The position numbers and the translations under genes are program-made. Positions 7,139 through 20,996 of a DNA stretch of 64,000 nt are shown one piece after another. The notes under the pieces were generated by a model that was not told the origin of the DNA, did not search any database, and saw only the letters and a program-made list of their open reading frames with translations. The DNA is taken from assembly GCF_003287275.1 (NCBI RefSeq), contig NZ_QEVW01000001.1:62001-126000 (forward strand). The letters are read 5' to 3'. The stretch's first letter is position 1. Each line of letters begins with the position of its first letter. The DNA is from Paenibacillus taichungensis. Lineage in GTDB: Bacteria > Bacillota > Bacilli > Paenibacillales > Paenibacillaceae.

Positions 7139-8311
7139 ATGAATAAATATGCTACAGCTGAAAAGGCGATTACCATAACTAAAGGTTCCGCTGAGTTACT
7201 GCACATTCATATCCCATATAACCTTGCATATATTGAACGGATTCGTCGAATTAAGGGCAGAACGTGGGAAGCCAAACAAAAAGTTTGGATCATCCCCTAC
7301 ACCATAGCTGCTCTTCAGGAGTTCATGAATCAATTTAATCCTGATGACGTTCTGATTACCCCAGAGTTGTGGGTTGAAAATGAGAATTTACAGCAGTGGA
7401 AAGCTAGTAAGGCAAACCATCCATGGAGCAAAGATCCGTTACAGAAGGCATTAAAGTTACGAGGATACAGCCGCAAAACGATTAAAGCATATTGTAATCA
7501 GGTCGAACGTTTTCTGAGTAACTGCCAACTTGAAAGTACAGCCGTGACTACTTCTGTAGTTCAGACGTACTGTTTAAATTTGCTTGAGCGAGGGATCTCT
7601 CATTCCAGTGTGAACCAGACAATTAGCGCAATTCGCTTCTACTGCCAGCACATACTCCATCATCCTACAGATATCCAGTATATTCGTCCCAAGAAGCAGA
7701 CCAAGCTGCCACAAGTGTTGTCCGAAAAAGAAGTTGCTAAATTGCTCACATCCGTAACTAATCTCAAGCATAAAACGATTCTTTTTCTCACGTATTCATC
7801 TGGTCTTCGTGTAGGTGAAGTCGTTCGTCTTCGATGCAGCGATTTGGATATTGAGCGTCAGACCCTTATTGTAAGGCAGGGAAAAGGTCAGAAGGATCGG
7901 AGAACAATCCTATCGAGCCTAGCGTGGGATATGGTGCAGAAATACATCACTGAATATAGACCAACTCGTTGGCTCTTTCCAGGGCAATCTTCTGATCGGC
8001 ATCTTACGGAGCGGAGTGTTCAGAAGGTTTTTGAAGAAGCTAGACAACGCGCAGGCATTGACAAAAAGGTTAGTATTCATGTCTTGAGGCACTCTTTTGC
8101 TACTCATTTGTTGGAAAACGGAACAGACCTGCGCTATATTCAGGAACTACTTGGTCACACGAGTGCACGAACAACACAGCGATATACCCATGTTAGTACG
8201 AAAATATTCAGCGTATTCAGAGTCCATTGGATCGTTTGGATTTGGGAGATTGAGTGCTTCAATAAATCTCCCTTTTTCACCAAATTTTTCTTCGCAAATA
8301 CTACACCATAG
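7139..8311 (+). CDS. Integron-like tyrosine recombinase (frameshifted near its C-terminus)
   Basis: ATG 7139 has a GAAGGAG site 8 bases upstream; the frame is open further upstream but with unrelated sequence. Residues about 18-66 (HIHIPYNLAYIERIRRIKGR.W...VWIIP) resemble a HARP-like N-terminal domain. Residues 98-178 form a SAM-like core-binding domain, then the catalytic domain. All catalytic residues are present: R224, K249, H314, R317, H340, Y349. The insertion typical of IntI integrases between the K and H/R boxes is absent. After residue 355 the frame runs into unrelated sequence to 8311. Restoring one A in the A-run at 8201-8204 gives an ending NIQRIQSPLDRLDLGD with stop at 8253, matching the paralogue at 55431-56048. 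So a 1-base deletion has replaced the native tail. It heads the cassette array in the same direction. Confidence 0.9.
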   Translation: MNKYATAEKAITITKGSAELLHIHIPYNLAYIERIRRIKGRTWEAKQKVWIIPYTIAALQEFMNQFNPDDVLITPELWVENENLQQWKASKANHPWSKDPLQKALKLRGYSRKTIKAYCNQVERFLSNCQLESTAVTTSVVQTYCLNLLERGISHSSVNQTISAIRFYCQHILHHPTDIQYIRPKKQTKLPQVLSEKEVAKLLTSVTNLKHKTILFLTYSSGLRVGEVVRLRCSDLDIERQTLIVRQGKGQKDRRTILSSLAWDMVQKYITEYRPTRWLFPGQSSDRHLTERSVQKVFEEARQRAGIDKKVSIHVLRHSFATHLLENGTDLRYIQELLGHTSARTTQRYTHVSTKIFSVFRVHWIVWIWEIECFNKSPFFTKFFFANTTP

Positions 8312-8390
8312 GTTATCATAGACGTAGTTCGGATATCAGGCGGGATCTGTGGTATTTACGAAGTACATAAATTAGATGTTAAGTGAAATT
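8254..8390 (+). other. attI-like site downstream of the recombinase (core 8371-8390)
   Basis: The 130 bases after the recombinase are almost identical to 56050-56191 after the second recombinase copy, although that copy is a pseudogene. Both end in AATTAGATGTTAA(G/C)TGAAA. Its GTTAAGTGAAAT matches the right ends of the palindromes (GTTATnnGAAAT), and its variable bases are complementary to the end of cassette 1 (TCACTTAAC at 9127-9135). This marks it as the array-side attachment site, with only one simple core and no long palindrome. Confidence 0.75.
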
Positions 8391-8416
8391 CCAATGAGAG
8401 TCATAGGTCTATAAAA

Positions 8417-8425
8417 TGGTATAAT
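8417..8425 (+). promoter_or_regulatory. Extended -10 promoter of cassette 1
   Basis: TGGTATAAT lies 30 bases before the GTG/ATG start region of the first cassette gene, with no strong -35. The same TGGTATAAT is found at 13576-13584 in cassette 7. Confidence 0.5.
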
Positions 8426-8454
8426 ATAACCATCAAAAAAGGGGAGGGACAGTG

Positions 8455-8697
8455 ATGAAATGGCAAGAAGTTCAACAGATTTTTCCGAATCAATTTGTGA
8501 AATTTGAAGTTCTTCATTCCGAAGAAACAGATAATCAAGAAATCATTGAGGATGTAGCCGTAATTGGTCCGATCAGTGATGAAGAAGCGACTCGCGAATT
8601 ATTGAATAGTAGAGATAAAACGCTGGTTTATCATACTTCCAAAGATCAAGTCGTAGTGCAGGTACGGAAAAATATAGGATTAAGGAGAAGTCTTTAA
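8455..8697 (+). CDS. Small unknown protein, cassette 1, first gene
   Basis: 80 residues from ATG 8455, 6 bases after GGGGAGGG; a GTG at 8452 is the less well spaced alternative. The sequence (EVQQIFPNQFVKFEVLHSEE, then VIGPISDEEATREL and DQVVVQVRKNIGL) has alternating strands and helices and no recognised domain. Its stop abuts the ATG of the retropepsin-like gene (TAAATG), so the two are translationally coupled and probably form a pair. Confidence 0.7.
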   Translation: MKWQEVQQIFPNQFVKFEVLHSEETDNQEIIEDVAVIGPISDEEATRELLNSRDKTLVYHTSKDQVVVQVRKNIGLRRSL

Positions 8698-19300: not shown

Positions 19301-20068
19301 ATGATATTAGAAAAAGTTATAAATAGAATTGCAATACAAAGTGAATATAAGGATTTTGTTGATAAGTATATAGATAATATCCTTAACGAATTTAAAGGTA
19401 AGATTCATAGCATTTATATGTGTGGCTCGGTTCCAAAAGGAACGGCTACACCTTTTAAGTCAGATGCAGACTTTACTATTGTATGTGCAAATCCTGAAGA
19501 TATTGATTACGAAAGAATATCAAATATTAAAGACAGGCTTTTGGAAGAATATCCAGTCCTAACTAAGATCGATACGATTATTTGCTCGATTGACGATGTA
19601 TTAAGTAAACCACATGAGTGGGGTTTTTGGGTTAAGATCATTTGTGTTTGCATACATGGGGATGACATTGGTGAAAAAGTACCCCCGATCATGATTTCTC
19701 CAGAGTTCATCATAGACTTAAATACAGAGACCAAGGAGGAAGTAGATCGTGTACATCGTTCACTTTCCAATGCTAGTGATGACACAATGAAAACTAGATA
19801 TATTAAAGGTTACTCTAAGAGATTAATTCGTGCATTATACTCTTTGGTTCTAGAAGATACAGGGGTATGGCAAGATGACATTATTAAGATGAAGAATGCC
19901 ATATTAAACTATTGTGAGATTGACTCCGCTTTAGTTGATTATCTGTATGCTTGTTACTTGGATAGTGATGTACTTGTTGAAGAGTTTCTGGAAATTGCAG
20001 ATGAAGTATATAGCTATTTGGAGAACGCTTTAAATGCAATGGCTGCTTCCAGAACTTCCGTCGACTAA
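19301..20068 (+). CDS. Nucleotidyltransferase (aminoglycoside-adenylyltransferase-like), cassette 11
   Basis: 255 residues; ATG 19301 follows TAGGAGGAG. The polymerase-beta-type catalytic signature CGSVPKG...SDADF (G42, S43, D55, D57) and a third acid in TKIDT (D91) are intact. A helical C-terminal domain follows (TRYIKGYSKRLIRALYSLVLE). This layout fits ANT-like enzymes that transfer AMP to a drug hydroxyl, but also MNT-type proteins that modify a toxin. The substrate is not predictable here. The stop codon TAA lies inside the left core of palindrome S11 (GACTAAC). Confidence 0.83.
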   Translation: MILEKVINRIAIQSEYKDFVDKYIDNILNEFKGKIHSIYMCGSVPKGTATPFKSDADFTIVCANPEDIDYERISNIKDRLLEEYPVLTKIDTIICSIDDVLSKPHEWGFWVKIICVCIHGDDIGEKVPPIMISPEFIIDLNTETKEEVDRVHRSLSNASDDTMKTRYIKGYSKRLIRALYSLVLEDTGVWQDDIIKMKNAILNYCEIDSALVDYLYACYLDSDVLVEEFLEIADEVYSYLENALNAMAASRTSVD

Positions 20069-20220
20069 CATTGCTCGGGGTCACTCTGAGAAGCGAGTGA
20101 GCCCATCCAGCCCGCTAAACCCGTCGGGACGTTACTGCATTAGGTGTTCGGCAAGCCTCACAACTATAAGCAGCGACTCTAAGGGGCCAGGACGTCGTCA
20201 ATACAAAACGTTTATCTGAC
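20062..20220 (+). repeat. Cassette recombination site S11 (diverged)
   Basis: CGACTAAC on the left and GTCGTCAATACAAAACG-TTTATCTGAC on the right, with CTCGCTTCTCAGAGTGA-like inner stems. The left end differs by one base from the expected complement of cassette 11's start (TTAGCCG). Confidence 0.75.
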
Positions 20221-20249
20221 ATAAACCTATTACATTTTAGGAGCAAATA

Positions 20250-20969
20250 ATGAATATCACTTTCTCGAAATGGGTGCAATATTATCGGAGAAATAATCAA
20301 AACCTCAAATATATTCATTGGGATGACAACTATAAATTAACAACTAATGAAAGAGAAATAATCATTAAGTCAATTCAACAGTTTCAATTAGGAGAAAACT
20401 CTGAAGGTAAATATCTAATTAAACGTGCGCAAGAATATGTACATCAGACACAAGATCAGGATTACTATGAAGCACTTATAGAATTCATTAAAGAAGAACA
20501 GAGGCACGCTAGAGATCTGGGCAGATTTATGAAGGTACAGGGAATCCCGCTCCTTCGTAGACATTGGGTGGACAATGTATTTAGAAGATTACGTCGATAT
20601 GCGAGTCTAGAACAATCAGTCATTGTTCTATTAACTGCTGAGATCATTGCTAAGTTGTACTATAAAGCCTTGCAAAAATCTACAAAATCAGAAGTATTAA
20701 TCGATTTATGTAATCAGATTTTAAATGATGAGGAGAAACATGTTCAGTTTCAATCCGAAACACTTTATAAATTTGCTCAAAATAGAAACGTTCTCTTTAA
20801 CAGAATAGTTTATATCCTTCGTAGAATCCTTTTTGAAGGAACGCTAATTATAGTGTGGTATCAACATAAGCCTGTATTTAAAGCTGGGGGATATAAATTC
20901 AAAAGTTATTACTATGAGTGCCGTCATGAGTTTAACTTAACAAAGAAGATTATAGCTAATGCACAGTAG
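20250..20969 (+). CDS. Ferritin-like diiron protein, cassette 12
   Basis: 239 residues; TTTTAGGAGC precedes ATG 20250. Two E-x-x-H pairs in long helices (EALIEFIKEEQRHARDLGRF and NQILNDEEKHVQFQ) give the carboxylate/His ligand set of a ferritin-like four-helix bundle, as in membrane-associated diiron oxygenase-like proteins. The C-terminus is hydrophobic (FEGTLIIVWYQHKPVFK). Function unknown; an oxidation or oxygen-sensing activity is possible. Its cassette ends in a half palindrome at 20978. Confidence 0.75.
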   Translation: MNITFSKWVQYYRRNNQNLKYIHWDDNYKLTTNEREIIIKSIQQFQLGENSEGKYLIKRAQEYVHQTQDQDYYEALIEFIKEEQRHARDLGRFMKVQGIPLLRRHWVDNVFRRLRRYASLEQSVIVLLTAEIIAKLYYKALQKSTKSEVLIDLCNQILNDEEKHVQFQSETLYKFAQNRNVLFNRIVYILRRILFEGTLIIVWYQHKPVFKAGGYKFKSYYYECRHEFNLTKKIIANAQ

Positions 20970-20977
20970 AGGTTTAC

Positions 20978-20996
20978 GTCAGATAACATTATATCC
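20978..20996 (+). repeat. Left half of a cassette site (S12 left)
   Basis: GTCAGATAACATTATATCC is the left arm only. It is complementary to the start of cassette 12 (TTTATCTGAC), so it is that cassette's own end. The right half is missing here; a lone right half ends at 38267. Confidence 0.75.

What the first reader, a model, noticed from the sequence alone, without database searches (positions are those of the whole stretch)
7139..20996. Integron-like gene-cassette array in a Gram-positive chromosome
A tyrosine recombinase is followed by a conserved attI-like site and about 12 cassettes, mostly one AT-rich gene plus one GC-rich palindrome each, all oriented the same way. The palindromes are unrelated to the genes they follow but related to each other. 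Classical integrons (IntI plus attC) are known mainly from Proteobacteria and related phyla. I do not know of a described equivalent in Paenibacillus, but cannot check the literature here.
Basis: partly seen in the sequence, partly recalled or inferred. Interest (0 to 1): 0.96.

Follow-up and report, generated by a model that had tools for sequence, protein, structure and literature searches.

The report
Integron-like gene collector in Paenibacillus
Bacteria of the genus Paenibacillus carry rows of gene cassettes, each ending in a related palindrome, that differ between strains exactly at the palindromes' cut points and are likely moved by a neighbouring recombinase that lacks the insert defining the classical integron integrase.

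Summary
The bases after GTTA that open a cassette complement the bases before TAAC at its own far end: 122 of 159 exact, against 17 of 159 within one palindrome and 8.0% for other sites. This is the integron cassette signature. At the third cluster a same-species genome is 98.7% identical up to the attI GTTA, then carries 2 unrelated cassettes where this strain has 3, then is 99.7% identical after the next GTTA. 72 of 74 genus genomes have sites. The recombinase is closest to IntI among solved structures but lacks the IntI-specific insert and falls outside the IntI clade. The same head-tail rule holds beside insert-less recombinases in Rufibacter, Flavobacterium and another Bacillota. A large survey found one complete integron and a few integrase-less clusters in Firmicutes. 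Recombinase activity and single-strand chemistry are inferred; this strain's own recombinase looks damaged.

The parts
7139..8311 (+). Xer/XerA-type tyrosine recombinase with a HARP-like N-terminal stretch; no IntI-specific insert (59 residues between GKGxKDR and HxLRH); C-terminal tail after about residue 356 out of frame compared with relatives
8355..8381 (+). attI-like site, TTTACGAAGTACATAAATTAGATGTTA; conservation among relatives ends at GTTA
8382..9129 (+). cassette 1 body (two ORFs, 8452-8697 and 8698-9075, the second aspartyl-protease-like); found elsewhere in the arrays of G299, G022 and G006
9130..9221 (+). attC-like site S1
9966..10080 (+). attC-like site S2; ends a cassette with an XRE-type HTH gene (9651-9920) and a minus-strand ORF (9258-9545)
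11151..11244 (+). attC-like site S3
11571..11683 (+). attC-like site S4; the cassette before it has no plus-strand ORF of 50 aa or more wholly within its body
12495..12600 (+). attC-like site S5, 5' arm shortened
13443..13535 (+). attC-like site S6; ends a cassette with an HNH-endonuclease gene (12713-13336)
15125..15313 (+). attC-like site S7 (weak, E 8e-4); ends a cassette with a cold-shock-domain + NTPase-like gene (13623-15047)
17875..18017 (+). attC-like site S8
18642..18674 (+). 3' half of an attC-like site, after a GNAT gene (18124-18642)
19148..19267 (+). attC-like site S10, after a SnoaL-like gene (18725-19108)
20060..20220 (+). divergent attC-like site after a nucleotidyltransferase gene (19301-20068); seen by eye, not found by the model
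20984..21000 (+). 5' half-site at the distal end of array 1
38677..38796 (+). attC-like site between the arrays
39268..39384 (+). attC-like site between the arrays
55401..56046 (+). degenerate second recombinase copy (several stops)
56156..56182 (+). second attI-like site, identical 27-mer
56630..56788 (+). attC-like site, array 2
57376..57468 (+). attC-like site, array 2; follows a NUDIX gene (56803-57327)
57930..58042 (+). attC-like site, array 2; follows a CdiI_3 immunity-like gene (57469-57903)
58709..58801 (+). attC-like site, array 2
59712..59873 (+). attC-like site, array 2
60355..60447 (+). attC-like site, array 2
61019..61169 (+). attC-like site, array 2
62046..62137 (+). attC-like site, array 2; followed by an HNH_5-like gene (62212-63399)
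63793..63811 (+). 3' arm of a further site (5 mismatches); the array continues past the window (next site C1:126786-126917)

Best explanation
This is an integron-like cassette-capture system in which cassettes that end in attC-like palindromes have been gained, lost and reshuffled at a conserved GTT point, most likely by a neighbouring Xer/XerA-type tyrosine recombinase that lacks the IntI-specific insert. Shown by comparison: cassettes as units bounded at GTT; an attI-like site where conservation stops at GTTA; a same-species difference exactly at that point; a recombinase-less cluster behind its own attI-like copy. Inferred: the recombinase cuts both kinds of site, inserting circular cassettes at attI (attI x attC) and excising them between palindromes (attC x attC); it likely reads the palindrome as a folded single strand, with the 3-nt asymmetry between the two unpaired spacers setting the strand; its HARP-like N-terminal stretch may do the structure reading that the extra helix does in IntI; and one recombinase may serve both attI loci in trans.
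For: Head of cassette n matches the tail of site n-1 exactly in 122 of 159, own tail in 17 of 159, other tails of the array in 212 of 2657. Same-species G299: 98.7% identity over 300 nt up to the attI GTTA of the C44 cluster, 39% over the next 100, 3 against 2 unrelated cassettes, 99.7% over 300 nt after the next GTTA; window cassette 1 lies behind attI in the window and behind an attC arm in G299. 11 attI-like sequences conserved to GTTA. Shared cassettes have unlike neighbours in 58 of 76 comparisons. All 224 sites of 17 sequence sets lie on one strand per set, and in the 16 sets with a recombinase (216 sites) it is the recombinase's strand. The two genus genomes without sites also lack the recombinase. 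IntI (2a3v) is the best match by sequence and by fold. 3-nt spacer asymmetry in 146 of 164 sites. HARP matches (E<=1) in 11 of 20 family members, best E 3.9e-6. The same head-tail rule beside insert-less recombinases in three distant loci.
Against: No activity has been shown. The window's own recombinase has its conserved C-terminal tail out of frame and the second copy is degenerate, so this strain's arrays may be frozen. 19 of 59 genus relatives have sites but no recombinase match at E<=1e-50; by my reading of the table 10 of these 19 hold degraded pieces and 9 only Xer-like proteins. Folding energies of the two strands are close (bottom strand lower in 4 of 5 sites by 0.2 to 3.1 kcal/mol, higher in 1 by 0.7), so strand choice is not shown. 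In one search, 14 of 113 pairs fit their own tail better and 13 tie. 35 of 207 cassettes have their longest ORF reversed, 16 of them in G084, and 10 have none of 50 aa. The HARP match of P0001 itself is below the cut-off (E 0.055, 13.5 against 25 bits). I fetched mainly DNA downstream of the recombinase; upstream 10 kb was fetched for 10 relatives only.
Confidence: 0.9

Rival explanations
1. It is a classical integron: a diverged IntI with ordinary attC sites, merely in an unusual host.
For: IntI (2a3v) is the best PDB match; the C-terminal SPLxxL motif is shared; NCBIfam NF040815, whose description includes 'integron integrase', is just reached (222.1 against 220); GTT/AAC cores.
Against: TIGR02249 integron integrase scores 189 against a cutoff of 265. 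GKGxKDR to HxLRH spans 59 residues in the window and in 9 of 10 Paenibacillales rows (the tenth, L054, lacks the first motif) against 99-100 in the 8 of 9 canonical IntI rows that could be measured. IntI forms its own clade (SH-aLRT 100) that excludes these proteins. GTTRRRY is met in 41 of 203 sites.
Confidence: 0.05
2. Cassettes are reshuffled by homologous recombination between palindromes or by housekeeping XerCD, and the recombinase is incidental.
For: Arrays persist in genomes without a detected intact recombinase; cassettes are duplicated within G084.
Against: The same-species difference at attI sits exactly at GTTA beside unlike palindromes. Head-tail complementarity needs a cut at one fixed point. 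An attI-like copy recurs at the recombinase-less cluster. In the arrays fetched around a recombinase the sites follow it on its strand.
Confidence: 0.05
3. The palindromes are REP-like repeats or terminators that happen to follow genes.
For: They are palindromes behind genes.
Against: Found only in clusters, one strand per array, head-tail complementarity between neighbouring sites, precise same-species difference.
Confidence: 0.01

Closest known systems
Sedentary chromosomal integrons / superintegrons (IntI, attI, attC; Vibrio type)
   Same: Row of mostly single-gene cassettes, mostly in one orientation, imperfect-palindrome sites with GTT/AAC cores, insertion at an attI next to a tyrosine recombinase gene, distal end conserved between relatives, cassette starts complementary to cassette ends.
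   Different: Recombinase without the IntI-specific insert and outside the IntI clade, with a HARP-like N-terminal stretch; recombinase gene reads towards attI and the array; branched multi-hairpin palindromes with 3-nt spacer asymmetry; a second attI-like cluster without recombinase at a recurring locus in Paenibacillus.
CALIN (attC clusters lacking an integrase)
   Same: The C44 cluster has sites and no recombinase.
   Different: It begins with a copy of the attI-like site and differs between two genomes of one species exactly there.
XerA / archaeal Xer recombinases (NF040815; 5hxy, 4a8e)
   Same: Catalytic domain; no insert.
   Different: Linked to a cassette array; about 100 extra N-terminal residues with a HARP-like stretch; C-terminal SPLD tail shared with IntI.

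Membership tests
Classical integron | Integrase with the IntI-specific additional domain near patch III (definition as in PMC9668308 passages) | tested here: not met
   59 residues between GKGxKDR and HxLRH in the window and 9 of 10 Paenibacillales rows, against 99-100 in 8 of 9 canonical IntI rows (the rest could not be measured); phmmer alignment leaves 67 IntI residues against 25
Classical integron | Integrase inside the IntI clade | tested here: not met
   9 IntI rows one clade, support 100; 10 Paenibacillales rows a separate group, support 88, core of 9 at 99 (quick method, no bootstrap)
Classical integron | attI site next to the integrase gene at which cassettes insert | tested here: met
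   (comparative, not biochemical)
Classical integron | attC sites: R''-L''-loop-L'-R' with AAC/GTT cores | tested here: met
   GTTA in 198 of 203 sites; L stem 6 or 7 of 7 paired in 164 of 180; TA/CG exchange 125/20 at stem position 1
Classical integron | Core consensus GTTRRRY (recalled from memory) | tested here: not met
   41 of 203
Classical integron | Cassettes as mobile units cut at GTT | tested here: met
   (comparative)
Classical integron | Recombination of a folded bottom strand | not testable with these tools
   sites fold on both strands with similar energy
Classical integron | Cassette promoter Pc and SOS control of the integrase | not tested
   no call made
CALIN | Cluster of sites with no integrase in cis | tested here: met
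   C44 cluster, but it has its own attI-like copy
REP/BIME repeats | Dispersed over the genome | tested here: not met
   26 sites in two regions of a 6.99-Mb genome; 150 of 1608 candidates scored

The most novel reading that the evidence does not exclude
Integrons are not one lineage: a second class, run by Xer-type recombinases without the IntI insert (in Paenibacillales with a HARP-like domain in its place), captures cassettes across Bacillota and Bacteroidota, has been hidden because surveys require the IntI domain, and in Paenibacillus can work from two attI platforms with one recombinase.
Probability: 0.6. Interest if true: 0.96.

Novelty: new variant of a known kind. Interest (0 to 1): 0.92.

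Why it matters
A large survey found one complete integron in Firmicutes (Limnochorda pilosa) and a few integrase-less clusters (PMC9024848, passages); whether integrons are really missing from that group was left open in 2008 (PMC2426708, passage). Here 72 of 74 genomes of one Gram-positive genus carry such sites, with an unlike recombinase. It makes a long-standing question testable: which part of the integron machinery is essential for capturing genes through folded DNA, and did it arise once? It also points to a pool of accessory genes, several without a Pfam match, and a possible gene-stacking tool for Gram-positive bacteria.

Tried and rejected
REP or terminator reading: rejected. Rfam: no match at gathering scores in the window or in five loci. 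Breakpoint test by raw BLAST ends: 1 of 78 starts within 8 nt of GTTA, no better than random; the conserved 3' arm carries matches 16-30 nt upstream, so the test cannot see the boundary; replace it. Stem covariation with floating register (own 6.6, cross 2.9 of 7) is biased by register; the fixed-register version is weaker (7.33 against 6.46 of 8, over 151 of 180 sites) and is the one to trust. Anti-phage role of cassettes: only weak PADLOC matches (best PDC-S07 2e-13 for a NUDIX domain, CSD_V 8e-9, mREase_IV 5e-6, cyclase 1e-4) among 15 proteins; not claimed. Virus carriage: one exact 19-mer scan of viral contigs found nothing. Plasmid and phage homologues of the recombinase are under 60% identical, not followed. 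Of the 80 loci, a 12-mer test flagged 18; I inspected L094, L102, L108 and L123 and ran the head-tail test on the first three only; the other 14, among them L098, L106, L153 and L156, were not inspected. L082 and L083 showed no repeats within the fetched DNA. Those scans score only the best candidates of a first look (150, 51), so site counts there are lower bounds.
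Full report
WHAT IS THERE. The recombinase ORF starts at 7139 and is followed by a 27-nt attI-like site ending in GTTA at 8378-8381 and a row of palindromes related to each other. A model of 13 window sites found 181 sites in 21 sources (437 kb; two sources had none), one strand per source. In the own genome 26 sites reach E<=0.1, 19 on C1 and 7 on C44, with 150 of 1608 candidates scored. A second array with a degenerate recombinase and an identical attI-like 27-mer begins at 55401.

THE CASSETTE SIGNATURE. If a cassette is a circle closed at a point inside GTT, the bases after GTTA at its start must pair with the bases before TAAC at its end, although these lie in two different palindromes of the row. 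For 159 neighbouring pairs, the three variable bases match exactly in 122; within the same palindrome in 17 of 159; against other palindromes of the same array in 212 of 2657, 8.0% (drawn from the 224 sites; pairs without TAAC or GTTA anchors or over 3.5 kb apart were dropped). A first version on 113 pairs and six bases gave a mean of 4.64 against 3.21 (own) and 3.15 (others); the neighbour fitted better in 86, the own tail in 14, tie in 13.

EXCHANGE BETWEEN GENOMES. Homology of the window with G056, G022 and G020 runs through recombinase and attI and stops at 8381; with G052, G047 and G299 it stops at 8389-8392. Eleven attI-like sequences, picked by an exact TTAGATGTTA, agree before it and differ right after GTTA; six other genomes lack that exact 10-mer, and I read diverged versions by eye in five of them and a mutated one in G026. 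Among 207 cassettes (median body 710 nt, GC 0.34) 31 clusters are shared or duplicated; where two genomes share one, the neighbour is also shared in 18 and different in 58 comparisons. The tool labels G299 the same species. At the C44 cluster, own and G299 are 98.7% identical over 300 nt up to the attI GTTA and 39% over the next 100; own then has 2067 nt with three sites, G299 1435 nt with two, without similarity outside the sites at E<=1e-3; from the next GTTA they are 99.7% identical over 300 nt. At array 1, window cassette 1 reads GATGTTAAGTGAAATTCC (behind attI), while in G299 the same cassette reads GGAACGTTAAGTGAAATTCC (behind an attC arm), 88.7% identical. Most of array 2 has no counterpart in the G299 stretch compared: its recombinase and attI remnant match only G299's array 1, and nothing from about 56.2 kb to 68 kb matches.

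TWO PLATFORMS. The C44 cluster has no recombinase match but starts with TTTACGAAGTACATAAATTTAGATGTTA, next to an oxidoreductase-like gene (named by eye). In G022, G020, G052 and G217 the same flank is conserved at 80-82%, and a related 27-mer (5-7 mismatches) lies within about 250 nt of its end. The two clusters are about 0.8-1.0 Mb apart in several genomes (read by eye). That one recombinase serves both is inferred.

THE SITES. L'' and L' pair in 6 or 7 of 7 positions in 164 of 180 sites, and the 3' spacer is longer than the 5' one by 3 nt in 146 of 164 and by 4 in 14. In fixed register, TA/CG exchange at stem position 1 (125/20) and rarer double changes at other positions fit a stem kept by selection, though most pairs hardly vary. 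Five sites folded on both strands: bottom lower by 0.2-3.1 kcal/mol in four, higher by 0.7 in one.

THE RECOMBINASE. The best solved relative is the Vibrio-type IntI 2a3v by sequence (E 3.5e-39) and by fold (E 3.6e-16; model pLDDT 82, pTM 0.54, so domain placement is unsure). It lacks the stretch that sets IntI apart: 59 residues between two motifs against 99-100 in 8 of 9 canonical rows. Nine IntI rows form one clade with support 100 that excludes it. TIGR02249 integron integrase scores 189 against a cutoff of 265. In an alignment of 20 relatives, 11 match the HARP domain at E<=1, best 3.9e-6; P0001 itself only at 0.055. That HARP domains act on forked or single-stranded DNA is recalled, from no call. 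The window's copy has lost the frame of its conserved tail; G056, G047 and G299 have open frames through it.

DISTRIBUTION. 72 of 74 genomes of the genus have sites at E<=1e-7; the two without have only 30-36% identical Xer-like proteins. Of 59 same-genus relatives, 38 have the recombinase at E<=1e-50, some of them broken by stops; of the other 21, 19 still have sites, and by my reading 10 of the 19 carry degraded recombinase pieces. In 200 genomes of the class (own included), 16 have sites at E<=1e-5, 12 of them in the own family; of the four others I looked at two: G117 has three sites at a contig edge, G146 a lone one. Arrays also lie beside 46-50% identical recombinases in three other families of the order; G084 has 40 sites in the stretch fetched.

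BEYOND PAENIBACILLALES. Rows of attC-like sites with the same head-tail rule stand beside insert-less recombinases (58 residues) in Rufibacter (10 of 11 consecutive detected pairs 5/5), Flavobacterium enshiense (7 of 8) and a Firmicutes MAG (4 of 4) (both misses span sites listed that my patterns did not catch). Algibacter onchidii shows a similar row, not scored. These four of 80 loci are the ones I inspected. In the tree these recombinases lie apart from the Paenibacillales group, so a single origin is not shown.

LITERATURE. Nine searches of the open PMC library listed no paper on integrons of Paenibacillus; I saw titles and abstract starts of the papers listed, and subscription journals and preprints are not covered. 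Passages read: PMC9024848, PMC8618304, PMC9668308, PMC8946536, PMC2426708. PMC8618304 names Firmicutes among the phyla in which integrons have been detected; PMC9024848 reports one complete integron and a few CALIN there. PMC9668308 says IntegronFinder needs the IntI-specific domain profile; this family lacks that domain, so it would probably not be called a complete integron (inferred, not run). Some of the few CALIN reported could be these arrays; I could not check.

VERDICT. It works like an integron by the comparative tests made, and fails the tests that define the IntI family. I file it as a new variant: integron-like systems with a different recombinase.

Noticed in passing
window 56217-56560: Short tandem repeat of about 40 nt (unit containing GCATGGAAGATAGTTTAAAGA) between the second attI-like site and its first palindrome, seen by eye.
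   Followed up: no
window 15773-16730 and 16776-17483: IS30-like transposase fragments and a CAP-like gene (both named by eye) inside array 1; the block clusters with ones in G047, G048 and G026.
   Followed up: partly
window 57469-57903: Cassette gene matching CDI immunity proteins (CdiI_3, E 6.5e-27); no toxin gene noticed beside it.
   Followed up: no
L054/L073 (G084): 17 related cassettes, most of about 550 nt and poor in ORFs where I looked; no Rfam match in L054. Also three identical cassettes with what looks like a RelE-type toxin-antitoxin pair on the reverse strand.
   Followed up: partly
L162 8196-8332 (G146): A lone attC-like site behind a gene in a genome of another family: possibly a cassette landed outside any array.
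   Followed up: no
L083 8478-11059: Two adjacent recombinases of this type (381 and 373 aa open frames) in an Undinarchaeales archaeon MAG, at a contig end.
   Followed up: no
L178 (G299) about 6233-7617: Recombinase module only 84% identical to the window's although the flanks are 94-99% identical in the same species: the platform itself may be exchanged.
   Followed up: partly
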